This document shows positions 7,336 to 27,719 of a stretch of 64,000 nt of DNA, piece by piece. Source of the DNA: Clostridia bacterium. GTDB lineage: Bacteria > Bacillota > DAOUPZ01. The position numbers were made by a program, and so were the translations under genes. The stretch lies in the NCBI GenBank assembly GCA_030625885.1, contig DAOUPZ010000017.1, positions 1 to 64,000 on the forward strand. The letters run 5' to 3'. The notes beneath the pieces were generated by a model that was not told the origin of the DNA, made no database searches, and saw only the letters and a list, made by a program, of their open reading frames with translations. Position 1 is the first letter of the stretch. Every line of letters starts with the position of its first letter.

Positions 7336-10300
7336 TTGAGAAAAAATCCGCTTTATATCATTGGATTGTCATTATTAATTGGGTTAATGTTTTTTCAGGT
7401 TGCCTATGGGGAAAATGAAGAACCGTTTGAAATATTGGTTAAGTATGCTCCATCATCTTTTAAAGCAGCCGATGCTCATAAAAAAGAGGGGATTGAAAAG
7501 CTGGGGGTTAGAAAGATTGTGGTAGATACCCTTGCAGAGAAGGAACGGATGATTGCGGCCTTAAAGGAAGACGAATCGGTTGAATATATTGAAGAAAACA
7601 TTAAATATTCAGCTTGTCAAATCCCTAATGATGAACTTTATGATCATGATTGGGGATTATCTAACCTAAATGCCGCAGCAGGGTGGGATTTAACCACCGG
7701 TAATTCAGAGGTCATTATTGCGGTTTTGGATACAGGGCTGTTAACGGACTATGCTGACCTGACTGCTAATAGGATAACCGGAAAAACATTTATTACAGGA
7801 ACCAGTACGCCTTATGATGATAATGATGATCATCATGGGACCAATGTGTCTGCTATTATTGCGGCGCAAGGTAATAATGGATTGGATAAAGCGGGCGTTA
7901 CATGGCATTCTAAAGTGATGCCGCTCAAAGTTTTGGACAGTAATGGGGATGGCTATACGGATAAGATTGCCGAAGCAATTATTTACGCTGCGGATCAGGA
8001 TGTGGACGTCATTAATATGAGTTTAGGCGGGGATCAATCATCAAACGTATTGGAAGATGCGGTTGAATATGCTTATAATAAAGGGGTCATCATGGTTGCA
8101 GCCTCCGGAAATCATAATGAGGGCATACCGCCCGTATCTTATCCTGCTGCCTATGATCATGTGTTGGCCATAGGGGCTATTGATCAAAATGAGACCATTG
8201 CGTATTTTTCGAATACGGGATATAACATGGGGTTTGTCGCGCCCGGGGTTGATATTACTTCTTATAATGGACAGAAGACCATTAACGGAACATCCTTTGC
8301 TGCGCCTTATGTATCGGGAACGGTGGCGTTGATGCTGTCCTTAAATCCTCAATTGACATTTGAAGAGATACAATCTATTTTAATCAGCACGGCTAAGGAT
8401 TTGGGATTACCGGGGTTTGATGAAAAATATGGTTACGGGTTAATTAATATTTATAATGTGTTAAAAATGATTGCTTCAGAGCCGGTTATTACACATGAGC
8501 CAATAACCATGGCAGCAGCAGGGAAGCCACTACAAATTGAGGCACAGGTGACGGATGAGAATGAGGTTGAAGCTGTTCTGTTATATTATAAGCCATCTAA
8601 CGGGAATGAATATTTCATGAAAGAAATGGTTCCGATCGAGGGAGATATTTATACGGCTGTCATAGAAGGAACCATGCTGCAGCAGCCGGAATTAGACTAT
8701 TATATTGAAGCGTCTAATGGTATACAAATAACCCATGAGGGAACGGCAGACAACCCGTTTAGAGTAACCGTGATGAGCGCACCGGTAATAGAATGCATCA
8801 ATAGCCAAGAAGGACCGGCAGCCGGAGGATCAGAAGTGATGATCAGCGGATTCAATTTCCAGCAAGGCGCGCAGGTTAAATTTGGTGATGTATTAGCAAC
8901 AGATATAACCGCCAATTCGGATACGAGCATCACAGTCATCACGCCGCCGCATTATCCATCATGGGTAGATGTTACCGTTATAAATCCTGATGGGCTTCAA
9001 GATCGGCTCACGCAGGCGTTTATGTTTAAAAGCGAAGGGGTAACGGTAAGCATACCCGATCGGACGGTATATGAGGGGCAGCTTGTTCGGATACCACTCA
9101 ATATTTCGGATGTTTCGGGATTACGATCGGTTGATCTTCAGCTGTCCTATGATGAAAAGATTCTACAATTGATACAAGTGACAAAAGGCAGTCTGACAGC
9201 TGACTTTGAACTGGGATATAACAGGGATCAAGCGGGGCAGTTGATATTGTCCATGGCATCGCCGACAGCGGTTTACGGAGCAGGTGTATTAAATAACCTC
9301 TATTTTAATGTTTTAAATACAGAAGCAGCAACTTCAGCACTTCATATGGATGATATTTCTTTAAATTCACCGGGGAGTATTCCGGTGAGTACAACAAATG
9401 GGACGATTTATATTACGCATGCCTTTGAAATATCTGGGAACGCCGGTTATTATAAAGGCGACAAAGTGCTTTCAAATGTGACTTTGGAATTGGCAGGGGA
9501 TAAGATGAGTACGACGGTTACCGATGCAACCGGAGCCTATCGAATGAAAGGCATCACAGAGGGTGAGTATACGCTGACGGCAAGCAAGGAAGATGAAGTC
9601 GATGGCATATCGGCCTATGATGCGTCTTTAATATTACAATCTTCTGCAGGTTTACTGGATTTTTCAATCGGGGAACTCATAGCAGGGGATGTTGATCATG
9701 ATGAAACGATTTCAGCTATGGATGCTTCCTATGTATTGGAAAAAGCAGTGGGGTTAAGAGAACTGCCGTTTCCGGGATTGGATAAAATGTGGACATTTCT
9801 TCCTGAGCAAAAAACGTATACTGATCTCAATAGCAATAAAGCCGCGGAAGATTTCACAGGGATTTTGATCGGAGATGTTTCTGGAAATTGGGGAGAGCTG
9901 GAAGCAGCTGTGCAAAGTATTTCAGAACAAGTTGAATTTACCCTGGGTACGGTCAGGACACAGCCCGGCGGACAGGTAGTTGTTCCTCTGCTGTTTGATG
10001 CCGCTCAAGAAAATCTGTATGGCATTGATATCAGTATAAGTTATGATCAAAATGTGGCCATCCCGGTATCTGTTATAAAATCCGATTTGGCGGATGAGCT
10101 TAGTCTAGGGATTAATTTAAATACCCAAGGTGTCATCAAAATGGCGCTTGCAGGGGCACAACCGCTGACGGGTCAAGGAAAACTGATGGATATTGTCTTT
10201 GATACCGTACAAAGTGCCGGATTAAAAACAGATATAAAAGTGGATCGGGTCGAGGTTAATGAGACGAATGCATCTGCAATCCATAACGGTCAGGTCATTA

Positions 10301-10473
10301 TTTCCATTGCAGGTGATGCGGATTTAAATAATACAGTAGATGTTTTAGATTTAGCATTAACGGCTAACCAATATGGCTTAGGTGATCAAGCGGTAGATCT
10401 TAATCATGACGGTATCATTGACCTTTATGATCTGGTTATTATCAGTAAGCATTTAGGCAACAGTTATTTATAG
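7336..10473 (+). CDS. Secreted subtilisin-like protease with cohesin-like and dockerin modules
   Basis: About 1045 residues. After a signal peptide (LYIIGLSLLIGLMFFQVAYG) come an I9-like propeptide, then an S8 serine-protease domain with the triad Asp132 (VLDTG), His167 (HHGTN) and Ser320 (NGTSFAAP). Next come an IPT/TIG-type Ig domain (8790-9030), a cohesin-like domain (9040-9415), a carboxypeptidase-regulatory-like domain (9420-9600), an irregular dockerin pair (9680-9890), a second cohesin-like domain (9930-10310) and a terminal dockerin (10312-10470) with DLNHDGIIDLYDLV. The protease should cut extracellular protein; the dockerin should plug it into a cohesin. The TTG at 7336 has GGGAGGT 9 bases upstream and gives a clean signal peptide; an in-frame ATG at 7291 has no ribosome site. 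Holding both cohesin-like and dockerin modules could make it a branch point. Whether those cohesin-like folds bind dockerins is unknown. Confidence 0.88.
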   Translation: MRKNPLYIIGLSLLIGLMFFQVAYGENEEPFEILVKYAPSSFKAADAHKKEGIEKLGVRKIVVDTLAEKERMIAALKEDESVEYIEENIKYSACQIPNDELYDHDWGLSNLNAAAGWDLTTGNSEVIIAVLDTGLLTDYADLTANRITGKTFITGTSTPYDDNDDHHGTNVSAIIAAQGNNGLDKAGVTWHSKVMPLKVLDSNGDGYTDKIAEAIIYAADQDVDVINMSLGGDQSSNVLEDAVEYAYNKGVIMVAASGNHNEGIPPVSYPAAYDHVLAIGAIDQNETIAYFSNTGYNMGFVAPGVDITSYNGQKTINGTSFAAPYVSGTVALMLSLNPQLTFEEIQSILISTAKDLGLPGFDEKYGYGLINIYNVLKMIASEPVITHEPITMAAAGKPLQIEAQVTDENEVEAVLLYYKPSNGNEYFMKEMVPIEGDIYTAVIEGTMLQQPELDYYIEASNGIQITHEGTADNPFRVTVMSAPVIECINSQEGPAAGGSEVMISGFNFQQGAQVKFGDVLATDITANSDTSITVITPPHYPSWVDVTVINPDGLQDRLTQAFMFKSEGVTVSIPDRTVYEGQLVRIPLNISDVSGLRSVDLQLSYDEKILQLIQVTKGSLTADFELGYNRDQAGQLILSMASPTAVYGAGVLNNLYFNVLNTEAATSALHMDDISLNSPGSIPVSTTNGTIYITHAFEISGNAGYYKGDKVLSNVTLELAGDKMSTTVTDATGAYRMKGITEGEYTLTASKEDEVDGISAYDASLILQSSAGLLDFSIGELIAGDVDHDETISAMDASYVLEKAVGLRELPFPGLDKMWTFLPEQKTYTDLNSNKAAEDFTGILIGDVSGNWGELEAAVQSISEQVEFTLGTVRTQPGGQVVVPLLFDAAQENLYGIDISISYDQNVAIPVSVIKSDLADELSLGINLNTQGVIKMALAGAQPLTGQGKLMDIVFDTVQSAGLKTDIKVDRVEVNETNASAIHNGQVIISIAGDADLNNTVDVLDLALTANQYGLGDQAVDLNHDGIIDLYDLVIISKHLGNSYL

Positions 10474-10621: not shown

Positions 10622-10680
10622 ATAGGGACTGTCCTCCTATTTTGCGCACGCAAAATCGGGGACAGTCCCTGTTTTTGCGT
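10622..10680. repeat. REP-A palindrome
   Basis: Outer arms TAGGGACTGTCC and GGGGACAGTCCCT; inner arms ATTTTGCG and CGCAAAAT. Lies between the two subtilase genes. Confidence 0.75.
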
Positions 10681-10781: not shown

Positions 10782-12368
10782 ATGTTCAAACAATGGATAC
10801 GATTTGCAGTGATGATGATTAGTATTTCAGTGATGGTGCAGCCCGGTTGGGCCAGTGAAGGCGAAAGTGAACTGCTGGTAAAGTATAAACCGGGGTACCG
10901 CCAGAGTACGTCTAAGGCAAACAACTTTGCTATTCAGGTAGTAGAAAACACGCCCTTAAGTAAAATCGGTGTCAAGAAACTAAAAGGTGCAGATAAGAAA
11001 AACATGGCGCAGCTGCATAAAGACCTGCTGCAAGATCCGGCCGTTCAATACGTTGTGGTCAATCATGTGCGTCATGCGCTGACAGTTATCCCCAACGACC
11101 CGGTGTTTACCGAACAATGGGCCTTAATGCGGATGCGCTTGCCGGAGGCTTGGGAGATAACCCGTGGAAACGCGGAAGTGGTGACAGCGGTTATCGATAC
11201 GGGTGTTGATATGGATCATCCGGATCTGGTCAATCGGCTGACATCAGGCCATGATTATGTTAATGACGACGATGATCCCGATGATGATAATGGGCATGGG
11301 ACGTTGGCGGGCGGCATTATTGCTGCTGCCACCGATAATCAAACACAGGCGGCCGGTGTGACCTGGCAGGGAAAGGTCATGCCGATGAAAGTGTTGGACA
11401 GCAATGGCAACGGGAATGATTCCGATATTGCAGCATCCATTATTGATGCTGCAGATGAGGGCGCCAAAGTTATTAACCTAAGTTTGGGTGCGCCTGAGTC
11501 TTCGCCCGTACTTCAGGATGCGATCAATTATGCCTATGGAAAAGGGGTCGTGATTGTCGCGGCTTCGGGAAACCATGATACATATGATTTGGAAAAGTTC
11601 GTTTTCTATCCCGCCGCTTGCGATCATGTGATTGCGGTAGGTGCGATTGAAAGTAATAATGAAATCGGCTATTATTCAAATTATGGGTTTGGAATGGACG
11701 TGGTTGCACCGGGGAGCAATATCACCGGCTTAAGTCATGATGGGGACATGAAGCAGGGAAGCGGGACATCATTTGCATCACCGCATGTTGCAGGATTGGC
11801 AGCGTTACTATTGGGATATGATACATCACTAACGCCAGATCAAACAGAAGCGTATATCACCAATAGTACCACCGATTTAGGCGATCCCGGCTGGGATGAA
11901 TATTACGGCTATGGCCTGGTGGATGCGTATACCGCGCTGCATACGCTGCAGCTCGATAAGCCGGGGATGCTCAGCGGCCAAATTATACCGGAAAACGGGT
12001 ATGGGATGGAAGCGATTGATCTTCGATTGGATGGTATGGATGTTTTGCAAAACCTTGATGACAGCGGCTATTTTACCATTGAGAATATCCAGGAGGGCGT
12101 ACATCATCTTGAGATATCAAAGCCCGGGTTTGTGACGAAAAAATTGGAAGTCCATGTTGGTTTGGGTCATACGATTGATTTAGGCGAAATAGATCTCAGG
12201 TATGGTGATCTTAACGGTGATGGGATCATCGATCTTTTTGATCTGGTGCTGTTATCTCGCAAACTGGATAGTACCTCTACATTACCGGACGCTGTTTATG
12301 ATCCAGATCATGATGGGAAAATATCGCTTGTCGATTTAACCTGCATCGCCTGGAACTATGGAAAGTAA
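10782..12368 (+). CDS. Secreted subtilisin-like protease with C-terminal dockerin
   Basis: 528 residues. Signal peptide about 1-25 (FAVMMISISVMVQPGWAS), an I9-like propeptide region to about 110, then an S8 domain with Asp139 (VIDTG), His172 (NGHGT) and Ser330 (SGTSFASP). A carboxypeptidase-regulatory-like domain follows (11965-12195), then a dockerin (12204-12366): DLNGDGIIDLFDLV and DPDHDGKISLVDLT. It should be exported, mature by removing its propeptide and attach through the dockerin to a cohesin such as that at 14379. It is a shorter relative of the preceding protease, lacking the cohesin-like modules. Its two dockerin halves are in the opposite order to those of the neighbour. AAAGGGAG precedes the ATG. 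Confidence 0.92.
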   Translation: MFKQWIRFAVMMISISVMVQPGWASEGESELLVKYKPGYRQSTSKANNFAIQVVENTPLSKIGVKKLKGADKKNMAQLHKDLLQDPAVQYVVVNHVRHALTVIPNDPVFTEQWALMRMRLPEAWEITRGNAEVVTAVIDTGVDMDHPDLVNRLTSGHDYVNDDDDPDDDNGHGTLAGGIIAAATDNQTQAAGVTWQGKVMPMKVLDSNGNGNDSDIAASIIDAADEGAKVINLSLGAPESSPVLQDAINYAYGKGVVIVAASGNHDTYDLEKFVFYPAACDHVIAVGAIESNNEIGYYSNYGFGMDVVAPGSNITGLSHDGDMKQGSGTSFASPHVAGLAALLLGYDTSLTPDQTEAYITNSTTDLGDPGWDEYYGYGLVDAYTALHTLQLDKPGMLSGQIIPENGYGMEAIDLRLDGMDVLQNLDDSGYFTIENIQEGVHHLEISKPGFVTKKLEVHVGLGHTIDLGEIDLRYGDLNGDGIIDLFDLVLLSRKLDSTSTLPDAVYDPDHDGKISLVDLTCIAWNYGK

Positions 12369-12370
12369 CC

Positions 12371-12406
12371 AACGCAAAAACGGGGACAGTCCCCATTTTT
12401 GCGTTA
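12371..12406. repeat. REP-A palindrome, compact form
   Basis: Near-perfect 31-base palindrome: CGCAAAAA, GGGGACAGTCCCC, TTTTTGCG. Starts two bases after the protease stop codon, so it can act as an RNA stem protecting or ending the transcript. Confidence 0.8.
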
Positions 12407-12427: not shown

Positions 12428-14227
12428 ATGAAAGAAAAGTGTTATAGATTATTTTTATACAGCATTATCATAACAACCGTTCATTTGTTGATGAACACCG
12501 GTTTTTATGGCTATGCGGCGGAGGACTTCAGGTCATCTGCTCAATTATTCAGCATGGAACGGGATGCTAAAGTGGTTGATGCAGGTGATAAAATAGCCAT
12601 CACTGTGAAGGGAACGAATGACATTTCTAAGATTTGTATCGTTCATTATGCGCCTTCATATGCTACGACTAAAAATTTTAAAGCCATCGAATTGAGTTCC
12701 CATGATGAAGGTTTATGGCAAGGCAGTTATGAAATTTATGCTTATGATGAAGCAGGTGTCTGGACCTTTAAAAATATGGTACTTTATGATTGGGCAGGGA
12801 ACCGGACGATGATCAACAGAAATGAATTATCCCAATGGATCAGGGGTATGGATGAAGAAACGTTGGATTTTATGGTGAGGGACACCATGAAAACGGATCC
12901 GTTAGCGGCCGATTTAAATGAGGATGGGATTGTCAATATTGAAGATCTATCTCAATTATCACTATCGTATGGCTCAAAAAGTACAGATAAAGATTTTGAT
13001 CGTATCAATGATTTAAATTATAACGGGTCAGTGGATTTATATGATTTGGATTTTATGGCTACACAATTTGATCACGATGTTCAAAAGCAAGCGCTGATGG
13101 CTTTTTGTCCCGGGTATATAGCCTACTCAGAGGATTTAGAAGCATCCATCAATCCTCTGGATACGGTTGCGTTTGCCTGGGGGCGGTTAGAAGATGAGCA
13201 TGGCATTGAACTGAATACGACTAAAGGTGAAAATGGCAACTATGATTTCTATTTTCCTTCCCGGGAGGATGATGGGATGAGCCTTCTGCAATATTGTAAG
13301 GATTCAGGGAAGTCAACAGCGTTCAGTGTTTTTGCCGATCGGGCAACGGTTGAAGCCATATTGCCGGATGACGAAAAAAGGCAAGAAGTGATTGAAGTCA
13401 TCATTGATCAAGTTTCAGAAGAGATTGAGATGGATGATGGGGAACCCTTTACATTTGACGGTATTGTTGTTGATTTTGAGGGGATGAAAGATCATAATGC
13501 CAGTGGTGATTATTATTTTTTTAATCATAAAGTTATGAGTGAATACTTTGATTTGTTTTTATTTGAATTAAAAGATAGGCTGCATGCGATGAACAAAAAA
13601 CTCTATGTAACGGTTCCTCCTAGAAAGTGGATGAATGGCTATAACTATGACAACATCATAAAGAATGCAGATCAAGTCATCTTGATGGCCCATGATTATG
13701 CATCAAGGGGAAAAATCAGCAAGCGCGATGTCATTAAATTTTTGGATGATAACATCAAAGACTCCATCAATTCGCTTGCCCCTATTCATCGAGTAGAAGA
13801 GGCGCTTATAGATATTGCCAGCTGTACAGAAAACCAGTGGGAACGAGATAAAATAGCTTTGCAGATTTCTTTTGGGACAGCCCAGTGGCAGTTTAAACTG
13901 TCGTCTCCAAAAGCATGGGAAAGTTTAAGTGATGAAACAGAGAGCGACAATGGCGCCCTGTCAACAACGTATGAAACGATAGCGGCCCGATTAAGAAATG
14001 AGGACGGTAAAGCAGAGGCACTTAAAGCCGGTTATAACAATGAAGTGGAAAGCCCGTATATCACGTACTACAATACAGATTCACAAACGTATAATTTTAT
14101 TCTTTATGAAGACAGCAGAAGTATATCAGCGAAAATCAATAAAGCAAAGGCATATGGTTTAAATGGGATCTCGATATGGTGTTTAGGGAAGATCACGGAC
14201 TTTCCCATCACTCTCTGCGTTCGCTGA
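12428..14227 (+). CDS. Secreted GH18-like protein with internal dockerin
   Basis: 599 residues. Signal peptide about 1-30 (RLFLYSIIITTVHLLMNTGF), a beta-rich domain to about 150, a dockerin at 12905-13075 (DLNEDGIVNIEDLS, DLNYNGSVDLYDLD), then a glycoside-hydrolase-18-like barrel to the end. The barrel has FDGIVVDFEG with the catalytic-position Glu351 and later YVTVPPRKW and VILMAHDY, as in SleL/YaaH-type spore and wall hydrolases that cut N-acetylglucosamine linkages. The canonical DxxDxDxE is reduced to DGIVVDFE, so activity needs proof. Start: ATG 12428, after AGGAGAGGTG; an in-frame GTG at 12419 overlaps that site. The last codons (LCVR, stop) lie in a dispersed repeat, so the original C-terminus may be replaced. 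Confidence 0.78.
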   Translation: MKEKCYRLFLYSIIITTVHLLMNTGFYGYAAEDFRSSAQLFSMERDAKVVDAGDKIAITVKGTNDISKICIVHYAPSYATTKNFKAIELSSHDEGLWQGSYEIYAYDEAGVWTFKNMVLYDWAGNRTMINRNELSQWIRGMDEETLDFMVRDTMKTDPLAADLNEDGIVNIEDLSQLSLSYGSKSTDKDFDRINDLNYNGSVDLYDLDFMATQFDHDVQKQALMAFCPGYIAYSEDLEASINPLDTVAFAWGRLEDEHGIELNTTKGENGNYDFYFPSREDDGMSLLQYCKDSGKSTAFSVFADRATVEAILPDDEKRQEVIEVIIDQVSEEIEMDDGEPFTFDGIVVDFEGMKDHNASGDYYFFNHKVMSEYFDLFLFELKDRLHAMNKKLYVTVPPRKWMNGYNYDNIIKNADQVILMAHDYASRGKISKRDVIKFLDDNIKDSINSLAPIHRVEEALIDIASCTENQWERDKIALQISFGTAQWQFKLSSPKAWESLSDETESDNGALSTTYETIAARLRNEDGKAEALKAGYNNEVESPYITYYNTDSQTYNFILYEDSRSISAKINKAKAYGLNGISIWCLGKITDFPITLCVR

Positions 14228-14378: not shown

Positions 14379-15563
14379 ATGAAGGAAAAAAAGTGTTTTA
14401 AGGGGATATTAACAGTGTCTGTCATCGTTTTTCTATGTTGTAGTATGGTGATTGCTGATCGCGTCGATGCGTCAGAGGTTACCGTCAGTATTAACCCGGC
14501 AAATTATACGGTAAGCCGTACAAACGAAATTATCCAGATTGAGATTCAAGCTGAGAATGCGAACAATTTGTATGGGGCAGAGGTGCATTTGTCATTTGAT
14601 CCAGAGCGCTTGGAAGTGGTGGATCCGAATGGAAACAGAATCACAAAAGTTAACGCAGGGGATGCATTTGTAACCGGGAACAAGTTTGTGGCCCAGAATA
14701 AAGTGGATCATGAGCAGGGAAAGGTTGATTTTACTGTTACGTTGTTGGGAAAAGTAAAAGGGAAGACCGGTGATACCATCGTATGTACATTTAACGTTAA
14801 AACAAAAAAAGTAATGGATAGTGAAATCCAATTGGACGAGGTTATTTTAATCCAATCGGACGACAGCGTCAGCCAATTATCTAAAGTGATGCCCCACATT
14901 CAAAATGGGCAGATCACAATAGAGGCGCAAACGGGTCACAGTCATTCCGGCAGTAATGATTCACAGACGCATAAAACATCTGACACAGATTCACAACAAT
15001 CGGTTGTTGATAAACAGACGCCAGTTTCTAAATCGTTGCATGACATTCAAGGCCATTGGGCTGAAGGGGATATTACGCGATTGGTCAATCAAAAAATCGT
15101 ATCCGGTGATCCGGATGGACGGTTTAGACCGGAAGATCAGGTTACGCGGCAGGAATTTGCCAAAATGATCGTGCTGGCAGCAGGTTTGCAAGAAGAGTTA
15201 AACCCATCACTCGATCTGACAGATAAAAATGGGATAGCCGATTGGTCCAAAGGGTATGTCGCCGCCGCTGTAAAAGCAGGGATTATCAACGGTTATGCGG
15301 ACCGCTCCTTTAAACCGCAGCAAAATATTACCCGGGCAGAAATTGCAGTCATGGCGGTTAGAGCGCTGGGGTTAAATGTGCAAGCAGGGAATATAGCTCA
15401 ATTTAATGATGCGCATGCCATTCCGGGCTGGGCACAATCCAATGTGGCAGCCGCTGCAGCCAAAGGGATCATTAACGGCTTCCCCGACGGGACGTTTCAA
15501 GCAGGCGGCAGTGCCACCCGGGCACAAGCCGCAAAGATCATTTCACATATTTTAGATAATTAA
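14379..15563 (+). CDS. Cohesin-SLH cell-surface anchoring protein
   Basis: 394 residues in three parts. Signal peptide 1-31 (LTVSVIVFLCCSMVIA). A single cohesin domain (about 35-185): VTVSINPANYTVSRTNE, then LYGAEVHLSFDPERLEVV, ending in IQNGQITIE. A short polar linker rich in Ser, Thr, His and Gln (about 186-218). Three SLH repeats (about 222-394), each with the GDPDGRFRPEDQVTRQE-type signature. Known families imply that the SLH part docks on the secondary wall polymer and that the cohesin captures a dockerin protein. With six dockerin proteins within 20 kb, it is the likely receptor for all of them, though specificity is an inference. It has only one cohesin, so it would tether one partner per molecule instead of building a long scaffold. 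TTAGGAGGCG precedes the ATG. Confidence 0.93.
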   Translation: MKEKKCFKGILTVSVIVFLCCSMVIADRVDASEVTVSINPANYTVSRTNEIIQIEIQAENANNLYGAEVHLSFDPERLEVVDPNGNRITKVNAGDAFVTGNKFVAQNKVDHEQGKVDFTVTLLGKVKGKTGDTIVCTFNVKTKKVMDSEIQLDEVILIQSDDSVSQLSKVMPHIQNGQITIEAQTGHSHSGSNDSQTHKTSDTDSQQSVVDKQTPVSKSLHDIQGHWAEGDITRLVNQKIVSGDPDGRFRPEDQVTRQEFAKMIVLAAGLQEELNPSLDLTDKNGIADWSKGYVAAAVKAGIINGYADRSFKPQQNITRAEIAVMAVRALGLNVQAGNIAQFNDAHAIPGWAQSNVAAAAAKGIINGFPDGTFQAGGSATRAQAAKIISHILDN

Positions 15564-15950: not shown

Positions 15951-17411
15951 ATGAAGAAAAATTTAATCGTATTGAGTGTTTGTATGCTGTTGGCATTTAT
16001 GGGTCTGATTCAGGTATCCCAGGATATCGCACTGGCAGAAGAAAGCATACATGTTGATTCAAAGGATGGGGGAAGCAAAATCATTAAATTACCGTCAGAC
16101 CGTGATCAAACGGACAGGAAAATGATGGATATTACAGGTGATACGGTAACCATTTTTGCGGAAGATCCTTTGCAAGATTGGGCTGTGGCAGAAGTGTTTT
16201 ATATGGATCCGGATTGGGATAACAATTATGGATGTTGCTGGGATATTGAGCCGCTGATTGAAGAGGTTGATGGCGGATGGAACATTACATTGAATGACTT
16301 GGACTGGTCAATGGCTGATACATATTATGTGAGTATTTCTACAGGTCATCGTATCTATCAAACCGAAGTTACCGCAGCTCAAGTCGGGCAGCAGATCAAT
16401 CTTGCACCGGATGATACCTATTTTAACGTTGAAATCGATGCGTCGTTTATGGAAAACATTGAAGAATTGGTATTACACTATATCGATGATGCAGGCCATG
16501 AAATGTCAGCAGGCGATTTAGAAGCGGGTGCTTTGATTCCTGCGGGGACGTATCATGTCCAGTTAAATGGTTGGGATGCGAGTGGTAACGGCTATTGCTT
16601 GTTTAAACGAAATGTTCAATTGTCCGCTGCGCAAAAGGTTATTTCTTTTTCACAAGATAATATGGAAAAAGTGACACTGAATCTAACCCTGCCGGCAGAT
16701 ACAAGTTTGAATCTGAATGCTATCATACCTTATCATGTGAATGATTTTTATACGACATATTACTTGGAAGATGACGAACATATCAATATCATTCAATCCC
16801 TTTACTTAACAAAAGATACTTATGAACATATTGGCTTTGAGTTCAATACGCCGGATAATCAATGGCTTTATGAAATACAATCCCCTCAACTTATCGTGGA
16901 TGGTAGTGCTTCAACCATCAGTATAGATGTTGGTGCGGATTTACAAGCAAGCATTGATTTAGAATCGCTTACCTTTCAGCCGGGTCAAACCATCGATACC
17001 TGGGGTGATATAGGGGTGTTTGATGGTGATGGGAATCAGTATTTTATTTATGATGCCGATTGGAATGAATTTGAAGGTATGATGGAACTGAATAACAGCA
17101 CTTTAACAGAACCCATTATATTACCGATCATGTATTCTACCATTACTTTCCCCGCTGATGTTACCGGCACTTTTGATATGACATATCGAGTAGAGGACGG
17201 GCCGCTCTCTATAGCGCCTGCAACGGTACAGATCAGTATTGGCGACAGTGGATCAGGTGCAACCAGTGATATCAATGGTGACGGCTATGTGAATATCGAC
17301 GATCTGTCCTATATGGCTGGCTTTTATGGAACAAATGATGTAGATTGTGATCTTAATAGTGATGGCATCGTTGATCTTTATGATTTGGTCATGATGAGTA
17401 AAAATCTATAA
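15951..17411 (+). CDS. Secreted dockerin protein of unknown function
   Basis: 486 residues. Signal peptide 1-30 (LIVLSVCMLLAFMGLIQVSQ, cut near ALAEE). The middle is beta-rich and acidic, with repeated aromatic segments such as YYVSIST, TYHVQLNGWD and FYTTYYLEDD; I do not recognise the fold. The last 48 residues are a dockerin: DINGDGYVNIDDLS and DLNSDGIVDLYDLV. It should be exported and held by a cohesin, perhaps as a binding or structural component because no catalytic motif is visible. The ATG at 15951 has GAGGAGG 7 bases upstream; the frame runs back to 15837, but that part encodes no signal peptide and overlaps a repeat. Confidence 0.75.
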   Translation: MKKNLIVLSVCMLLAFMGLIQVSQDIALAEESIHVDSKDGGSKIIKLPSDRDQTDRKMMDITGDTVTIFAEDPLQDWAVAEVFYMDPDWDNNYGCCWDIEPLIEEVDGGWNITLNDLDWSMADTYYVSISTGHRIYQTEVTAAQVGQQINLAPDDTYFNVEIDASFMENIEELVLHYIDDAGHEMSAGDLEAGALIPAGTYHVQLNGWDASGNGYCLFKRNVQLSAAQKVISFSQDNMEKVTLNLTLPADTSLNLNAIIPYHVNDFYTTYYLEDDEHINIIQSLYLTKDTYEHIGFEFNTPDNQWLYEIQSPQLIVDGSASTISIDVGADLQASIDLESLTFQPGQTIDTWGDIGVFDGDGNQYFIYDADWNEFEGMMELNNSTLTEPIILPIMYSTITFPADVTGTFDMTYRVEDGPLSIAPATVQISIGDSGSGATSDINGDGYVNIDDLSYMAGFYGTNDVDCDLNSDGIVDLYDLVMMSKNL

Positions 17412-17510: not shown

Positions 17511-18296
17511 ATGATGCCCAGACAGGCCCGTATCAAAGCTGAAAATGCTATTTATCATATCATGCAGCGTGGTAATGAAAAGAAACCCATTTTTAAAGGG
17601 GGGGCAGATAAATACTGTTATTTAGAGAAGCTTCAGATAGCAAAACAGAAATTTAAGTTTAAAATACATGCCTATTGTCTCATGAACAATCATGTCCATC
17701 TTTTAGTATCTGCCAACGGTGCTGATATTTCCGAATTTATGAAAAGCATCAATGTTAGTTATGTTGCTTATTTTAATCATCAATATCAGCGTTGTGGGCA
17801 CTTGTTTCAAGGGCGTTTTATTAGTGAAATCGTAGATACGGATCGTTATTTTTTGCAGGCCAGTAAATATATTCATGCCAATCCCGTTAAAGCTTTAATG
17901 GTTGAGAAACCTCAAGATTATCATTGGAGTAGTTATGGGGTCTATATTGGTACGAGAAAAGATGAGCTGCAGTTGGTTGATATAGATTTAGTATTAGATA
18001 TCATTTCCAAAGATCGCAAAGTCGCTATTGAGAAATATAAAGAATGGGTAACCGATGAAAGACGCATTGGTTCCGGCTATCGACGTTTCAGGTATTTTGA
18101 AGAAGGCAAGGAGGATGAGAGAATTCAACAGGCTATCATTAGAAATATTCTAACGACTTATCCTGGAGAAAGAGATCAGGTTTTGCTGGAACTCAGGAAA
18201 AAAACAGATTTAACGTTAAAGGAAATGGGGCAGCTGGTTGGCGGTCTTTCCGCATCAGCAGTCCAAAGAGCATTGAAGAAACAAGAGAACAAGTAA
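17511..18296 (+). CDS. REP-associated tyrosine transposase (RAYT, Y1/TnpA-REP family)
   Basis: 261 residues, usual for the family. The HUH motif is His61-Val-His63 in MNNHVHLL, and the catalytic tyrosine is Tyr120 in SKYIHANP, followed by WSSYGVYIG. The C-terminal 60 residues form a helical DNA-binding-like region (LKEMGQLVGGLSASAVQRAL). RAYTs are single-copy IS200-like enzymes that cut and join single-stranded REP hairpins and probably spread them. REP-A palindromes lie directly on both sides, and at least nine more are in this window, which strongly suggests they are its substrates. Start: ATG 17511 with AAGGAGGTG 6 bases upstream (17514 is also possible). The catalytic residues are intact. 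Confidence 0.93.
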   Translation: MMPRQARIKAENAIYHIMQRGNEKKPIFKGGADKYCYLEKLQIAKQKFKFKIHAYCLMNNHVHLLVSANGADISEFMKSINVSYVAYFNHQYQRCGHLFQGRFISEIVDTDRYFLQASKYIHANPVKALMVEKPQDYHWSSYGVYIGTRKDELQLVDIDLVLDIISKDRKVAIEKYKEWVTDERRIGSGYRRFRYFEEGKEDERIQQAIIRNILTTYPGERDQVLLELRKKTDLTLKEMGQLVGGLSASAVQRALKKQENK

Positions 18297-18363: not shown

Positions 18364-19860
18364 ATGAACGGGAAAAGAACGATAATGATCAGTATCTTAA
18401 TTTTTGTGGTTCTATTTAACCTTAAGCTATCGGTTGCAGCAGCGCAGGAATTAGACTTAAATCAAATGACGCATACCATTGTTACAGAAGATCGCGGTGA
18501 TGTTCTTAATATGACCATTGATCAAGCGCAGGGGATGGTAACGGTCAATGACCAGATAATCTCAATGGAAGGATATCTTTATAAAGTATTTGTCAATGAT
18601 TTGACAGGCGACGGTCATTATGAAATAATTGTATCGTCTAAAAAAGAAGGTACCGCTTCTCTGTTAAGTTATAGCGTGTATGACGTATTAAATGGGGAGC
18701 TCAACAGCCTATATAAGAAAGAAAACATTTATAAAGGCCGTATTGAAATAAATGAAGGCAGCATCGTAGAATGGATACCGGTTTATGCTGAGGGAGATGC
18801 CAATGCATGGCCGAGTGCGTATATGCAAAATATGTATCGATTTGATGGGACAACCTTTGTACCGGATCGCGCCGTAGAAACGGTTCCGCAAAGACAATCG
18901 TTAACCATAGGACCCGGTGTTAATCCTTCAAGAGCAGAAATAGAAAGCATCATGGAAGAAGTTGCGGCTCGTGTGGGTATCCCGGCTTGTATTCTCAAAA
19001 GTATTGGTTATACGGAGAGTACGTTTCGCCAGTACAAAGACGGCTACCCCCTTTCGCCAGTCGGTGAAAGCAGCTGGGGGATCATGCAGGTCAATACGAA
19101 GTGGCATCCCGAATATTCGGAAGAACGATTAAAATATGATATCCGGTACAATATTCAAGCCGGGGCGGAAATATTGAAGAACAAATGGCACAGAACAGAC
19201 ATTCCTAAAGTTGGAAATCATGATCTGCGGGTGTTGGAAGACTGGTATTTTGCGATTTGGGCCTACAACGGATGGTCCGATGTGAATAATCCCAACTGCA
19301 ACTTAAAACCGGAAGTGTATCAGGATAAAGTCATCGGCTTTGCTCAGGCGCAATTTGGACAGGCTGTCACTAGAATAGATTCAGATTTATTACCCCAGAC
19401 AGGTAAGCCGGCTTCCGATGAGATCTATACAACGCCCCAGCCGCAGCATTTGATCGATTTAGGGATTCACAAAGGCGATATTTTAATCGATATGACGGAT
19501 GAGTCCGGTGTCAATTTGCGAGATCAAGCGCAAGATGGGTTAACGGTTGGCAGTTTATCCCCGCGTGAGGGGATGCTGGTCGTGGGAGAAGAACCTGTGG
19601 TAGATGGTCATTATTTAAGGTATCACGTTAAAACGCTTGACGATGCATTGGAAGGCTGGGTTGTGCTGAAATATGTGCAAAAAATGCGCAACAGTGACGT
19701 GAATAAAGATGGGATCACAGATGTATTTGATCTTGTAAAGCTATCTCGAAAGATGGGCTGTTTTATAACGGGTGAAAATGGGGATGATCAACTTGATATG
19801 AATGATGATGGGGAAATCGATACCTATGACTTTATGTTAGCAGCAAAAAAATATCACTAG
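18364..19860 (+). CDS. Secreted lytic-transglycosylase-like protein with SH3-like and dockerin modules
   Basis: 498 residues. Signal peptide 1-28 (TIMISILIFVVLFNLKLSVA), an N-terminal domain of unknown type (30-180), then an SLT lysozyme-like domain (about 185-330) with Glu218 in GYTESTFRQ, ESSWGIMQV and WAYNGW. An SH3b-like module follows (about 370-440, GVNLRDQAQDGLTVGSL) and then a dockerin (19693-19857): DVNKDGITDVFDLV and DMNDDGEIDTYDFM. Lytic transglycosylases cleave the MurNAc-GlcNAc bond of peptidoglycan; here the enzyme would be held at the surface by its dockerin. The Tyr and Gln positions expected around GIMQV are present. ATG 18364 is preferred over the in-frame GTG at 18358, which lies inside AGGAGGTG. 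Confidence 0.87.
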   Translation: MNGKRTIMISILIFVVLFNLKLSVAAAQELDLNQMTHTIVTEDRGDVLNMTIDQAQGMVTVNDQIISMEGYLYKVFVNDLTGDGHYEIIVSSKKEGTASLLSYSVYDVLNGELNSLYKKENIYKGRIEINEGSIVEWIPVYAEGDANAWPSAYMQNMYRFDGTTFVPDRAVETVPQRQSLTIGPGVNPSRAEIESIMEEVAARVGIPACILKSIGYTESTFRQYKDGYPLSPVGESSWGIMQVNTKWHPEYSEERLKYDIRYNIQAGAEILKNKWHRTDIPKVGNHDLRVLEDWYFAIWAYNGWSDVNNPNCNLKPEVYQDKVIGFAQAQFGQAVTRIDSDLLPQTGKPASDEIYTTPQPQHLIDLGIHKGDILIDMTDESGVNLRDQAQDGLTVGSLSPREGMLVVGEEPVVDGHYLRYHVKTLDDALEGWVVLKYVQKMRNSDVNKDGITDVFDLVKLSRKMGCFITGENGDDQLDMNDDGEIDTYDFMLAAKKYH

Positions 19861-21479: not shown

Positions 21480-21556
21480 CAATTCACAATTGACAATTCA
21501 TAATTCACAATTAAAAGATGAAAGAACAGGCGTTAGCAGGCAGCAGGTAGGAAAAG

Positions 21557-21624
21557 ATAGAGGGACGATCGCTCTCTGCGTTCGCTGAACGAGGAACGAT
21601 CGCTCCCTTTGGTTGCTCAACGAT
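21557..21624. repeat. CGTTCGCTGAACGAG dispersed repeat
   Basis: A tandem pair of about 31-base units, each beginning GAACGATCGCTC or GGACGATCGCTC: the first continues TCTGCGTTCGCTGAACGA, the second CCTTTGGTTGCTCAACGA. Confidence 0.75.
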
Positions 21625-21665
21625 AAAGGATAAAAGATTGGCTGAAGGCTGAACGTTAAACGAAA

Positions 21666-21735
21666 GATTGGGGACTGTCCCTGCTGGTTGCATGCTTTAT
21701 TGAAATCAGAGGGACTGTCCCCAATGTTGCGTATT
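21666..21735. repeat. REP-A palindrome, long-loop form
   Basis: Arms of about 22 bases, ATTGGGGACTGTCCCT plus CTGGTT, facing the complementary GGGACTGTCCCCAAT, with loop GCATGCTTTATTG. The same form recurs at 25725, 27963 and 58982. Confidence 0.8.
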
Positions 21736-21982
21736 AGAAGCTAAAGGAACAGGAGTTAGGAGTTAGGAGTTAGGAGTTAGCAGGTAGGAGTTAGGAAAAG
21801 ATTTTTCATTTGACAGTTGACAGTTAAAGGGTGAAAGATAAAAGATTGGCTGAAGGCGGAAAGCTGAAAGCTAAAAGCAAGTGTAAAGTAGAACCAATTG
21901 CGAAAACGATCTTTTAATCATTTAATTATGAATTGTGAATTAATAATTGTGAATTGCTTACAGAAAGGTTCAGGGTGATGTC

Positions 21983-22792
21983 ATGATTGATATCCATAGT
22001 CATATTTTGCCCTTTTTAGATGATGGGGCGGACGATTGGGAAACCGCATTGGCCATGGCGCGAATTGCGAGTGAGGAAGGCATTCATACCATGGTAGCGA
22101 CGTCTCATTATATTGAAGGTGCCGTGGAGCCGACAAAAGAAGAGATTCAAGAGAAAATTGCTGAATTTAGTAATCTTTTATTACAAGCAGGGGTTGAACT
22201 GACGGTTTTGCCCGGTCATGAAATATACTTGACACCGTTCGTCCCACAGCTTTTGGAAAAGGGACGGCTGTTTACGTTAAATGATCGTTACCCGTATGCG
22301 CTCATTGAATTTCCCATGCAGGAAATACCGATCTATTGTGAATCTGTGATTTTTGAGCTGCAATGTATGGGTATTAGCCCCGTTTTGGCCCATCCCGAAC
22401 GGAATCGGAAGATTGTCGAGAATCCCAATTTGCTATATCCCCTGTTAGAAAAGGGGCTTTTGACGCAGATGAACAGCAGCAGCCTGACCGGGAAATTTGG
22501 TTCAGCTGTTCAGAAAACGGCGCAAATATTGCTGCAATGTCGGATGATCCACGGTATGGCCACAGACGCTCATTCGGATGGCGGCCGTGCACCTCGAATC
22601 CAGGAAGCATCACGAATCGTGCGGGAAATGGTACCGGAAGACTATGCCCAGAAAATTCTTGAGGAATGGCCTCGGCGGATCATTGCCGGAGAGCCCATCA
22701 ACCCGCCTTTACCTCAAGAATATATACCGCCGCGGAAGAAAATGAGTTTTCTGGAAAAGATGAAAAGGCAATTTACAATTCATAATTCATAA
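21983..22792 (+). CDS. CpsB/YwqE-type tyrosine-protein phosphatase (PHP domain)
   Basis: 269 residues. The metal-binding PHP motifs are present: MIDIHSHILP near the start, the HPERN block at about 137-141 and DAHSD near 196. These enzymes are manganese-dependent and dephosphorylate the CpsD-type kinase encoded just upstream, completing the switch. It is separated from cpsD by 500 bases of repeats, unlike the tight clustering usual for this operon. The final residues FTIHNS come from an AATTCATAATTCAC repeat, so the C-terminus has probably been changed or extended. ATG 21983 with AGGGTGATG upstream. Confidence 0.9.
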   Translation: MIDIHSHILPFLDDGADDWETALAMARIASEEGIHTMVATSHYIEGAVEPTKEEIQEKIAEFSNLLLQAGVELTVLPGHEIYLTPFVPQLLEKGRLFTLNDRYPYALIEFPMQEIPIYCESVIFELQCMGISPVLAHPERNRKIVENPNLLYPLLEKGLLTQMNSSSLTGKFGSAVQKTAQILLQCRMIHGMATDAHSDGGRAPRIQEASRIVREMVPEDYAQKILEEWPRRIIAGEPINPPLPQEYIPPRKKMSFLEKMKRQFTIHNS

Positions 22793-22952
22793 TTCACAAT
22801 TGAAAGGATAAAAGAACAGGCGTTAGGCGTTAGCAGGTAGGGAAAGATTTTTCAGTTGACAGTTGACAGTTGAGAGTTGACAGTTAATGGATAAAAGAAC
22901 AGGAGTTAGCAGGTAGCAGGTAGGAAAAGAAAAAAGGATTAGCTGAAGGTTA

Positions 22953-23007
22953 ATGCAAGAATGGGGACATTCCGTGAGGTACGAGCGGTGTGTCCCCATT
23001 CTTGCAT
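22953..23007. repeat. REP-B palindrome
   Basis: ATGCAAGAATGGGGACATTC, loop TGAGGTACGAG, then GTGTCCCCATTCTTGCAT. The outer arms ATGCAAGAATGGGGACA pair perfectly with TGTCCCCATTCTTGCAT. Confidence 0.8.
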
Positions 23008-23170
23008 ATGCGAGAATCTAAAAACTAGGGGAAAGTAAATCTAATGCAAAAACGATCTTTTAATCCTTTAATTGTGAATTATGAATTGTGAATTATGAAT
23101 TGAAAGCAATGATTTCCAATTTTTGTCTATGATGCATGTTATATTTTTAGTATAATAAATTTATAGTATA

Positions 23171-24176: not shown

Positions 24177-25615
24177 AGCCGAACAATCAATTGAAGATAT
24201 ATATTGGGATTTTAATGGTTCTTGCTTTTTATGCCAGCTGGTCGGTTATAAAATCATATCCTGTTGCCAACACCTTGGGGACATGGTTTGTGATCGGTAT
24301 TTTTGTGTTATTGAGAATCATATTGGGAACGAAAAGCACAACAATTATTGATAACGGGGTAGAGAAACAATACCGATATACATTTGTAATTAGCGTTCTT
24401 GCCGTTTTGAGTGTAGGCCCCGGGGCTGCCCTGGTCAGTATGCTGGTTGCTTATCCTGTCTATTCTGTAATCAATATTGTTACAAAGAAAATAGGCAGGG
24501 ATATAGGAGAGATTTTTTTCAATTATGCCATTCAATTACTATCCCTTTCGGGAATGGGAACATTGTTCGTCTTGTTGGGCGGTTACGCTGGGGGTGTTCG
24601 GTTTCCATATAATACCTTTGCAATATTAACGGCATCAGCAGCTAATTTCTTTATCAGTAATTTACTAACTATTGTAAAGATGAAGCTGAAAAGAAAAGAA
24701 TCGGAAAGTATCACCCAGATTTTTAAAAAAGAGTATCTGTGGCTGATTCGATATGATTTGTGGCAGGCCATTTACGGCGTATTGGTTTACAATGTGTTTC
24801 AAATGACGTTATTACAGCTGGCGGGACGGAAAGCTGGTGCATTGGGTGGAACAGGGTTATATCAGGTGACCAATACGGATGTTATTAGTTTGCTGGGTAT
24901 CATTACTATGGGCTTTATATTCTATTATCCATTGAGTCAAAGACTTCACTCTTTTCAAACGCTCATAAAATACAACAAACAAACTCAGGAAATTAAAAAC
25001 CTCTATGAATTGCTGCAAAAGGAATATGATCGAGAAGTAGAAAATATTGAAAATGTCATTGTTGTACTGGCAAAAGCCATTGAAGCCAAGGATAAATATA
25101 CGGAAGGTCATGCGCAAAGGGTCAGTCAGTATGCCGTGGCCATCGGTAAAAAAATGAATCTTTCCGATCAAAGTATTAAGACGTTGGAAATCGGTGGGCT
25201 TATTCATGATATTGGAAAAATCGGAATCCCGGAAGCGGTTTTGAATAAACCGGGAAAATTAACCGATGAAGAATATGAAATTATCAAGAAACACCCTGCG
25301 GTAGGCGAAGAAATTTGTAAACCGCTGCAATCTCTGAAAAATATCTTACCCGTTATTCGCTATCACCATGAGAAACTGGATGGTGTGGGTTACCCGGACG
25401 GTTTAAATGCCCCTCGAATACCTGTAGAGGCCAGAATTGTTGTCGTCGCCGATATTTTCGATGCATTATACAGTGACCGACCATATCGTGGTAAGATGCC
25501 TTTGGAGAAAGCATTGAATATTTTAAGAGAGGAAAAAGAACGCAATCATCTAGATGGGCATATTGTGGATATATTTATTGATATCGTCACGACTGGCGAG
25601 CTAGCGGTTGACTGA
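24173..25615 (+). CDS. Membrane HD-GYP domain protein (probable cyclic-di-GMP phosphodiesterase)
   Basis: 480 residues. The N-terminal 270 residues form about seven membrane helices, a likely sensor. A short coiled linker (about 265-300) leads to an HD-GYP domain with His345-Asp346 (LIHDIGKIGIP), HPAVGEE, YHHEKLDGVGYPDG (Gly-Tyr-Pro at 406-408) and DIFDALYSDRPYR. The domain normally hydrolyses cyclic-di-GMP, a signal that often controls exopolysaccharide. TTG at 24173 has GGAGGAGGG upstream and overlaps the preceding stop (TTGA), so translation is coupled. No matching GGDEF cyclase is in the window. Confidence 0.9.
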   Translation: MKPNNQLKIYIGILMVLAFYASWSVIKSYPVANTLGTWFVIGIFVLLRIILGTKSTTIIDNGVEKQYRYTFVISVLAVLSVGPGAALVSMLVAYPVYSVINIVTKKIGRDIGEIFFNYAIQLLSLSGMGTLFVLLGGYAGGVRFPYNTFAILTASAANFFISNLLTIVKMKLKRKESESITQIFKKEYLWLIRYDLWQAIYGVLVYNVFQMTLLQLAGRKAGALGGTGLYQVTNTDVISLLGIITMGFIFYYPLSQRLHSFQTLIKYNKQTQEIKNLYELLQKEYDREVENIENVIVVLAKAIEAKDKYTEGHAQRVSQYAVAIGKKMNLSDQSIKTLEIGGLIHDIGKIGIPEAVLNKPGKLTDEEYEIIKKHPAVGEEICKPLQSLKNILPVIRYHHEKLDGVGYPDGLNAPRIPVEARIVVVADIFDALYSDRPYRGKMPLEKALNILREEKERNHLDGHIVDIFIDIVTTGELAVD

Positions 25616-25623
25616 ATTAAAGA

Positions 25624-25690
25624 TAGAGGGACGAGCGCTCTCTGCGTTCGCTGAAGGAGGAACGATCGCTCCCTTTGGTCGCTGAACGAT
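25624..25690. repeat. CGTTCGCTGAACGAG dispersed repeat
   Basis: ACGAGCGCTCTCTGCGTTCG, CTGAAGGAGGAACGATCGCT, CCCTTTGGTCGCTGAACGA. First element of composite copy 2. Confidence 0.75.
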
Positions 25691-25724
25691 AAAGCATAAA
25701 AGATTGGCTGAAGGCTAAACGAAA

Positions 25725-25794
25725 GATTGGGGACTGTCCCTGCTGGTTGCATGCTTTATTGAAACCAGAGGGACTGTCCCCAATGTTGCGTATT
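25725..25794. repeat. REP-A palindrome, long-loop form
   Basis: Identical to the element at 27963 and one base different in the loop from that at 21666, which suggests recent copying. Confidence 0.8.
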
Positions 25795-25974
25795 AGAAGC
25801 TGTTAGCAAGTGTAAAGAAAACCTAATGCGAAAACGATCTTTTAATCCTTTAACTGTCAACTGTCAACTGGCAAAGGCGTGTCCCCATTGTTGCGTTATT
25901 ATAGGCACAAAGTGTCAATATTCTAAATGTTTTTAGTCTTTTAATTATGAATTAATAATTGTGAATTATGAATT

Positions 25975-26034
25975 GGTGACTATAAGAGCAGCAGCCTACT
26001 ACGGCTGCTGCTCTTATAGTCACCCGTTTGGGTG
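25975..26034. promoter_or_regulatory. Perfect 22-bp hairpin with overlapping second stem
   Basis: Arms GGTGACTATAAGAGCAGCAG-CC and the exact complement, with loop TACTAC (25975-26024). The end of the 3' arm, CACCC, can instead pair with GGGTG (26021-26034), so the two stems exclude each other. There is no clear T-run, so it is not a plain terminator. A diverged relative lies at 28123-28181, on the other side of the dockerin gene. Confidence 0.55.
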
Positions 26035-26213: not shown

Positions 26214-27719
26214 ATGAAAAAGCAGGGTAGTCTTATTTTGGTCCTTATTTTTGCCTTGATCTGTTTTGTAGGGATACCTCAAGATGCGGCATGGGCGGAA
26301 GGGACAGAAAACTTTACTTTAAGTGTGGTTGAGCCTGAATTAACGGTGATTCAGGGGCAAACAGCCGAGTTTGTGGTGGATGTGAAATTTGTCAGCGGTT
26401 TTAGTACAGCGGGTGGGATTAATTTCTTTATTCCTGAGGCATCGGATGGGAGTTATGCTTTTAGTCCGGTACCCGTTAAGAATCCCGGTGGTGTGCTGCT
26501 CCAGATTGATACCAGCAGTCTGGCAGCAGGGACTTATGAGTGGCAGGTGCAATCATTGGAAGATCAATCTTCTGCCCAATTTGCGCCCATTACCTTGAAT
26601 GTCATTCATCCTACGGATATTCTATTTGATGTTTGGGATGGCACCCAAACACAGAATGACGTCACGTCGGTGAATGTAGCGTCTCAGGATAAATTTGAAG
26701 TCTGTGGCCGCATAATGGATGATGATGGTGAAGAAATGGAGTGGGATACGCCGTTTACATTGCAATCCGGTGATCCCGGGAAAATGGCTGTTTACCTTAA
26801 TCAGTACGGGAGTTATGACGTGTACGCCATTGATAATGGGACGGTGACTTTAACAGCCGCTTGTGCAGATGGGTTATCGAGAGACTTGACGGTCAATATC
26901 AATATTCCCGCAGATGCCCCCCGGATTACGGCCATTGATCTGAATCCAATGACGGTGACCAATGGGGGAGATGAAGATATCTATTTTACTGTTACGACAA
27001 TGACTCCGGCTCCCATTACTGTAGGCGTACTAGGTGTGATGGGTGTAGATTTCGTAGATCATGAATGGAGCGATGATTTAAAAACCTATACGTCTTTGAT
27101 TCGAGTTAATGAAGGGGAAGTGCCGGGAGAATACCTGTTTTATGGTAGTACAAGTGACGAAGTAACGGGGTTAAGTGCAACGCGTGCTATTCCATTGACT
27201 CTGGTAAATGACCCTGCACGCTGTGAAATTAAGGGAACGGTACAAAAGATGGATGCCGGTGACTTTGTACACCATGGGGCATCCGGTATGCTGGAACTCT
27301 ATGATCCAGTTACCGAAACTAAAGTGTATGAGCAACATATTTGGAACATGACGAACGAGTACTGCCTGCCTTATGTGACACCGGGAAATTATCGATTACG
27401 CTTTATACCTGATTCAGCCTTTGAACAAACATCCCAATGGTATCCCAATGCACCGGACTATCAATCAGCTGATGTGATATCCGTGAATGCAGGCCAGACG
27501 ACAGAAGATATTCACTTCTTTATAGCGTCTGAAAACACAGAACCGGTCGAAGGTGATGTAAATGATGATGGATTGGTCGATCAGCTCGATCTATCCGCCG
27601 TTGCATTAGCTTACGGAATGGACTCGACAATGGCCGGATTTGACAGCAAATATGATATCAATCAAGACGACATTGTGGATCTCTATGATATCGTGTTAAT
27701 TGCTAAAAAGATAATTTAA
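26214..27719 (+). CDS. Secreted dockerin protein with Ig-like modules, function unknown
   Basis: 501 residues. Signal peptide 1-29 (LILVLIFALICFVGIPQDAA, cut near AWAEG). Beta-rich modules follow, including FTLSVVEPELTVIQGQTAEF (30-130), a region around 130-230, another near 235-340, and a carboxypeptidase-regulatory-like domain (about 345-440, CEIKGTVQKMD to YRLRFIPD). The dockerin (27549-27716) reads DVNDDGLVDQLDLS and DINQDDIVDLYDIV. No catalytic motif is visible. The dockerin type matches those of the 7-20 kb cluster although the gene lies 6 kb away, beyond the cps regulatory genes and between two copies of a composite repeat. ATG 26214 follows AAAGGAGG by 11 bases; the frame begins at 26190. 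Confidence 0.75.
   Translation: MKKQGSLILVLIFALICFVGIPQDAAWAEGTENFTLSVVEPELTVIQGQTAEFVVDVKFVSGFSTAGGINFFIPEASDGSYAFSPVPVKNPGGVLLQIDTSSLAAGTYEWQVQSLEDQSSAQFAPITLNVIHPTDILFDVWDGTQTQNDVTSVNVASQDKFEVCGRIMDDDGEEMEWDTPFTLQSGDPGKMAVYLNQYGSYDVYAIDNGTVTLTAACADGLSRDLTVNINIPADAPRITAIDLNPMTVTNGGDEDIYFTVTTMTPAPITVGVLGVMGVDFVDHEWSDDLKTYTSLIRVNEGEVPGEYLFYGSTSDEVTGLSATRAIPLTLVNDPARCEIKGTVQKMDAGDFVHHGASGMLELYDPVTETKVYEQHIWNMTNEYCLPYVTPGNYRLRFIPDSAFEQTSQWYPNAPDYQSADVISVNAGQTTEDIHFFIASENTEPVEGDVNDDGLVDQLDLSAVALAYGMDSTMAGFDSKYDINQDDIVDLYDIVLIAKKII

What the first reader, a model, noticed from the sequence alone, without database searches (positions are those of the whole stretch)
7336..27719. An S-layer-anchored cohesin-dockerin complex carrying proteases and wall-acting enzymes
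One protein joins a cohesin to three SLH repeats (14379-15563). Six exported proteins within 20 kb carry dockerins (7336, 10782, 12428, 15951, 18364, 26214), all with DxNxDGxxDLYDLV-type loops. The cargo is two S8 proteases, a GH18-like protein, a lytic-transglycosylase-like protein and two unknowns; none is a cellulase. Seen directly: the modules. Established: cohesins bind dockerins and SLH binds the wall. Inferred: these six occupy this anchor, making a small surface proteolytic or wall-remodelling complex, encoded next to the capsule locus.
Basis: partly seen in the sequence, partly recalled or inferred. Interest (0 to 1): 0.85.

Follow-up and report, generated by a model that had tools for sequence, protein, structure and literature searches.

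The report
Cell-surface cohesin–dockerin protease and wall-enzyme cluster
A bacterium with no sign of the usual cellulosome genes carries a gene cluster that looks built to plug two proteases, a wall-cutting enzyme, a chitinase-like enzyme and two structural proteins onto its S-layer with the plug-and-socket modules cellulosomes use, one protease being also a socket carrier; the parts are known, the combination is little described, and no binding has been tested.

Summary
The modules are real: one exported type II-like cohesin–SLH×3 anchor and six exported dockerin proteins (two S8 proteases and a lytic transglycosylase with intact catalytic motifs, a GH18, two unknowns). So 'these six occupy this anchor' is plausible but not a unique solution. 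In its favour: the anchor cohesin models as type II; CarboxypepD-like–dockerin dyads of this genome, two of them here, align with type II X-module–dockerin pairs; nine dockerins, all six here included, share one recognition face. CBM3 and GH9 are absent (the GH48 search is uninformative). Comparable cohesin-anchor plus dockerin loci, and another S8–cohesin–dockerin protein, occur in other genomes of the phylum. S8 protease–dockerins and peptidase–cohesin–dockerin scaffoldins are known from cellulosomal clostridia. Best read as a small, branched, non-cellulosomal surface complex: a new variant of a known kind, pairing untested.

The parts
7336..10473 (+).
9580..9840 (+). divergent dockerin-like 'DAS' repeat pair inside the S8 protease (Pfam 21.6 bits, cut-off 22.9)
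10309..10464 (+). C-terminal dockerin, DLYDLV in repeat 2, immediately after cohesin 2
10782..12368 (+). S8 protease - CarboxypepD-like (X-like) - dockerin (12201-12365)
12428..14227 (+). GH18-like enzyme with an internal dockerin (12905-13078) ahead of the GH18 domain
14379..15563 (+). anchor: type II-like cohesin (14475-14924) + three SLH repeats (15036-15560)
15951..17411 (+). exported protein of unknown fold with C-terminal dockerin (17262-17408)
17511..18296 (+). Y1_Tnp (RAYT-like) transposase gene interrupting the cluster; not part of the complex
18364..19860 (+). lytic-transglycosylase-like (SLT) protein with C-terminal dockerin (19690-19857)
26214..27719 (+). Ig-like / CarboxypepD-like protein with C-terminal dockerin (27546-27713)
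1170..7202 (+). 2010-aa Ig-like surface protein ending in a CFI-box C-terminal domain, directly upstream; no cohesin or dockerin found; possible partner only

Best explanation
The locus encodes a small, branched, non-cellulosomal cohesin-dockerin complex (type II-like) displayed on the S-layer. Shown by sequence: the modules, signal-peptide-like starts, SLH anchor, intact catalytic motifs and a shared dockerin recognition face. Inferred: the 14379 anchor binds the secondary wall polymer by its SLH repeats and takes one dockerin protein at a time on its cohesin; when that is the 7336 S8 protease, its own two cohesins can take two further dockerin proteins (second protease, GH18, transglycosylase or structural proteins), giving a short tree instead of a linear scaffoldin. 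Dockerins of the same class elsewhere in the genome, and other cohesins (a two-cohesin CFI-box protein on C15, a cohesin-dockerin adaptor on C38), probably exchange with it. The cargo suggests turnover of surface or foreign protein and local peptidoglycan remodelling, not plant-fibre degradation.
For: Modules confirmed. Anchor cohesin: moderate model (pLDDT 62, pTM 0.61) whose cohesin matches of ranks 1-24 in the PDB are all type II, several solved bound to X-dockerins, ahead of type I and III; sequence search agrees. CarboxypepD-like-dockerin dyads of this genome, including 10782 and 26190, align as a profile with type II X-module-dockerin pairs over much of the X-module (4wi0_B, 4u3s_B, E 6e-15); 10782 alone also spans both modules (E 1.7e-5), 26190 alone only the dockerin. 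The best solved match of the 10782 dockerin is a serine-protease dockerin pair, 8x39/8x3a. All six window dockerins and three others carry an aliphatic/Thr-aromatic pair at positions 10-11 of one repeat, with a basic residue at 18 in eight of nine. The anchor gene lies among the dockerin genes, same strand. CsaB is present. No CBM3 or GH9. Cohesin-SLH genes lie beside dockerin genes in G293, G377, G383 and G285, and an S8-cohesin-dockerin gene lies beside a cohesin-Cu-amine-oxidase-N gene in G191.
Against: No binding data. Most cohesins of this genome are only about 20-35% identical to one another, so specificities may differ and the anchor may bind only some or none of these dockerins. Cohesin 2 and the dockerin of the 7336 protease have almost no linker, which constrains geometry. 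The protease's cohesin 2 gives only weak matches, to type I cohesins as far as the hits can be typed. No X-like module was detected before the dockerins of 12428, 15951 and 18364. Palindromes with terminator-like features lie between the genes, so one operon is not established.
Confidence: 0.6

Rival explanations
1. Distributed network: the window's dockerin proteins are held mainly by other cohesins (the C15 two-cohesin CFI-box protein, the C38 cohesin-dockerin adaptor, or the protease's own cohesins), and the 14379 anchor serves another dockerin or only a few of these.
For: Ten cohesins and twelve dockerins genome-wide; same-class dockerins on C38, C27 and C6; on C38 a cohesin resembling the two C15 cohesins (33-37% identity) is joined to a DLYDLV dockerin.
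Against: Gene linkage favours the local anchor; type II likeness of both the anchor cohesin and the dockerin dyads.
Confidence: 0.27
2. Vestigial or purely structural modules: cohesin and dockerin folds are kept as Ig-like and calcium-binding spacers with little specific pairing; the proteins are secreted or wall-bound independently.
For: Divergent dockerins, some under the Pfam cut-off; several proteins of the genome carry a cohesin and a dockerin in one chain.
Against: Calcium-loop residues are conserved in both halves and a common face recurs in nine proteins; cohesin anchors sit beside dockerin genes in several distant genomes.
Confidence: 0.1
3. Part or remnant of a cellulosome that degrades plant polysaccharide, with cellulases encoded elsewhere or lost.
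For: Homology to cellulosomal modules; dockerin-bearing S8 proteases and GH18 occur in real cellulosomes (PMC12484212).
Against: All 12 dockerin proteins were inspected and none is a cellulase; no CBM3 or GH9 in a 98% complete genome. The GH48 search rang in no control and shows nothing.
Confidence: 0.03

Closest known systems
Clostridium thermocellum S8 protease with double dockerin (dDoc_0689), binding cell-bound ScaD (review PMC12484212)
   Same: S8 subtilase carried by a dockerin and proposed to be held at the cell surface; the best solved match of the 10782 dockerin is the 'Serine protease' chain 8x39/8x3a, which I take to be this protein
   Different: Works beside a cellulosome; no cohesins described in that protease; that 8x39 is Cthe_0689 is inferred from its name only
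ScaO/ScaP peptidase-cohesin-dockerin scaffoldins of Clostridium alkalicellulosi, Acetivibrio cellulolyticus, Pseudobacteroides cellulosolvens (PMC6780208)
   Same: Peptidase, cohesin(s) and dockerin in one chain, as in the 7336 protein
   Different: Found in large cellulosome systems with many cellulases; orthology not tested
SLH-anchoring scaffoldins with type II cohesin (SdbA, ScaF1 types; PMC11557425, PMC6780208)
   Same: Type II-like cohesin plus SLH repeats; a single-cohesin form is known (ScaF1)
   Different: There it holds a primary cellulose-binding scaffoldin; none was found here
Non-cellulosomal cohesins and dockerins of diverse bacteria and archaea, including ANME archaea (Peer et al. 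2009, as cited in PMC9012536)
   Same: Cohesins and dockerins outside cellulose degradation; proteins joining S-layer and dockerin domains
   Different: Described as domain inventories with unclear roles; a compact anchor-plus-enzymes cluster is not described in the text I read

Membership tests
Cohesin-SLH anchoring scaffoldin | At least one cohesin paired with SLH domains in an exported protein | tested here: met
   14379-15563: cohesin 30.6 bits (cut-off 24.1), three SLH; signal-peptide-like start
Type II cohesin | Fold and sequence closer to type II than to type I or III | tested here: met
   Foldseek ranks 1-24 all type II, on a moderate-confidence model
Type II X-module-dockerin dyad | Ig-like X-module directly before the dockerin | tested here: inconclusive
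   Met for 10782 alone and for the dyad profile; 26190 alone matches by its dockerin only; not seen in 12428, 15951, 18364
Cellulosome | Cellulose-binding primary scaffoldin (CBM3) and dockerin-bearing cellulases | tested here: not met
   No CBM3, no GH9; no cellulase among 12 dockerin proteins; GH48 search had no ringing control
Functional cohesin-dockerin complex | Specific calcium-dependent binding between partners | not testable with these tools
   needs binding assays
SLH-type wall anchoring | CsaB, the enzyme that pyruvylates the wall polymer bound by SLH | tested here: met
   C15:24075-25007, 295.6 bits, cut-off 213.1
Peptidase-cohesin-dockerin scaffoldin (ScaO/ScaP-like) | Peptidase, cohesin and dockerin in one exported chain | tested here: met
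   7336-10473; sequence orthology with ScaO/ScaP not tested

The most novel reading that the evidence does not exclude
A dedicated, self-branching surface protease complex: a protease that is at once enzyme, cargo and bivalent scaffold builds an S-layer tree of proteases and wall hydrolases in a lineage without a cellulosome; similar cohesin-anchor systems with other cargo (purple acid phosphatase, RCC1, S8) occur across its phylum, suggesting that the cellulosome is one specialisation of an older, general surface-assembly kit.
Probability: 0.25. Interest if true: 0.75.

Novelty: new variant of a known kind. Interest (0 to 1): 0.5.

Why it matters
Cohesin-dockerin pairs outside cellulosomes are known but their roles are mostly unclear. 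A compact locus with an anchor, an enzyme that may double as scaffold, and a clear set of cargo makes the question testable with about twenty small modules, and bears on whether cellulosomes arose from a general surface-display kit.

Tried and rejected
Naming the organism: the one genome-contig scan returned only a weak SLH match in a goat gut MAG, and records of the own genome may be left out; no held genome shares the class, order or family, so conservation of the locus in close relatives could not be tested. Docking of cohesin and dockerin could not be modelled (single chains only); mixed alignments misaligned cohesins with dockerins and were not folded. The fold of the unknown 15951 protein gave pLDDT 42 and was not used. 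A Pfam-only census undercounts: 8 cohesins and 7 dockerins against 10 and 12 with own profiles. Peer et al. 2009 is not held and is known here only through PMC9012536. The cellulosome reading was considered and rejected.

Full report
OBSERVATION. The window is part of contig C10 of a 3.1-Mb, 98% complete draft genome with no held relative below phylum level. All modules claimed are present. The 14379-15563 protein has a cohesin and three SLH repeats; six proteins with signal-peptide-like starts carry dockerins. S8 triads (D-H-S) are intact in both proteases, the SLT glutamate and GIMQ/AYNG motifs are present, and the GH18 motif is DGIVVDFE, keeping the catalytic acid. Random placement of 12 genes never put six in 20.4 kb in 200,000 trials.

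(1) The first protease (7336-10473) is S8-TIG-cohesin-CarboxypepD-divergent dockerin-like-cohesin-dockerin. The two cohesins are solid (45.1 and 47.4 bits); the middle dockerin-like repeat is just below Pfam's cut-off and has no second copy in the genome at E 0.1. This protein is therefore cargo and potential bivalent scaffold. (2) The GH18 protein has its dockerin in the middle (12905-13078), ahead of the enzyme. (3) Genome-wide there are 10 cohesins (one cut by a contig end) and 12 dockerins: on C15, two cohesins in a protein ending in a CFI-box C-terminal domain; on C38, an RCC1-repeat protein with cohesin and dockerin, a cohesin...dockerin adaptor, two large cohesin...dockerin proteins and the cut cohesin; on C27, an SLH-dockerin protein; on C6, an N-terminal dockerin protein. 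That the C38:58.8k protein has RCC1-like repeats is my reading of its sequence.

DOCKERIN CLASSES. Reading the usual contact positions 10-11 and 17-18 of each repeat, nine dockerins (the six here plus C38:60.3k, C27, C6) share an aliphatic (or Thr) - aromatic pair at 10-11, a small residue at 17 and, in eight of nine, a basic residue at 18. In seven this sits in the second repeat only; in 10782 it is in the first, and 18364 has a version in both. Two C38 dockerins form a second class (FYDITN-like in both repeats), and C38:59.3k stands alone. The contact positions come from general knowledge of dockerins and are an inference for these proteins.

COHESIN TYPE. The anchor cohesin was modelled with only three sequences (pLDDT 62, pTM 0.61); even so, Foldseek's ranks 1-24 are all type II cohesins, several from solved complexes with X-dockerins (4u3s, 4wi0, 5g5d, 2b59, 5k39), with type I and III lower. 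Separately, a profile of five CarboxypepD-like-dockerin dyads from this genome aligns with the X-module and dockerin of 4wi0_B and 4u3s_B at E 6e-15, better than dockerins alone (6e-11). For 10782 alone the alignment also spans both modules; for 26214 alone it covers only the dockerin. So the anchor and at least part of the cargo are of matching type. A type match is compatibility, not proof of pairing.

MECHANISM. Most likely a small branched surface complex, as set out under Best explanation. Shown: modules, export signals, catalytic residues, SLH and CsaB, recognition-face similarity. Inferred: pairing, branching through the protease, and function in protein turnover and wall remodelling. 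The anchor has a single cohesin, so six proteins cannot fill one anchor molecule together; either many anchors each carry one protein or the protease branches the tree. The genome has no CBM3 or GH9, so it does not look like a cellulosome; the GH48 search cannot be interpreted because no control rang.

RELATIVES. In 399 genomes drawn from the phylum, 81 have a cohesin match. Of 20 stretches taken, four genomes have cohesin-SLH genes near dockerin genes (G293 and G377 with purple acid phosphatase-dockerins; G383 with an RCC1-fn3-cohesin-dockerin giant; G285 with cohesin-dockerin proteins), and G191 has an S8-PA-cohesin-CarboxypepD-dockerin protein beside a cohesin-Cu-amine-oxidase-N protein, close in plan to this locus. 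The stretches were picked for promising frame lengths, so this is not a frequency estimate.

KNOWN. S8 protease dockerins that prefer a cell-bound scaffoldin (PMC12484212), peptidase-cohesin-dockerin scaffoldins and Coh2-SLH anchors (PMC6780208; PMC11557425), and cohesin/dockerin sets in organisms not thought to degrade cellulose (PMC9012536) are published. What I did not find in the papers I could read is a compact locus where these come together without cellulases. Literature coverage was limited to open-licence papers.

VERDICT. Observation confirmed and extended; interpretation partly supported; new variant of a known kind; interest 0.5.

Noticed in passing
window 17511-18296 and palindromes at 10639-10679, 12363-12403, 17403-17476, 18308-18350: A RAYT-like Y1_Tnp gene sits in the cluster, and palindromes around GGGGACAGTCCCC with GCAAAA flanks lie between the dockerin genes. 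A pattern search gives 24 forward and 24 reverse matches genome-wide and none for the reversed control, most of them on contig C10. Looks like a REP/RAYT system; membership not tested.
   Followed up: partly
window 21553-21742, 25612-25801, 27850-28039: Three copies of a ~190-nt intergenic repeat (66-91% identity to the first) with a strong hairpin (z -7.2 for 25700-25810); two of them flank the 26214 dockerin gene.
   Followed up: partly
window 21466-23116, 25840-25989, 28079-28123: Short repeats of the AATTGTGAATTATGAATTG and AGGAGTTAGCAGGTAGG kinds in intergenic regions.
   Followed up: no
L081:6202-9435 (contig C10, about 70.2-73.4 kb): Another S8 protease, fused directly to three SLH repeats, about 43 kb downstream of the cluster; further SLH proteins follow on the same contig.
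   Followed up: no
window 1170-7202 and L018:3363-5192: A CFI-box C-terminal domain is shared by the giant Ig-like protein upstream of the cluster and by the two-cohesin protein on C15, suggesting a common surface tail.
   Followed up: no
L083, L084 (G293, G377): Giant proteins of 2630-2868 aa with two cohesins beside cohesin-SLH anchors and purple acid phosphatase-dockerin proteins: different cargo for the same plan.
   Followed up: partly
window 31007-32041: A RhuM-family gene inside the polysaccharide locus.
   Followed up: no
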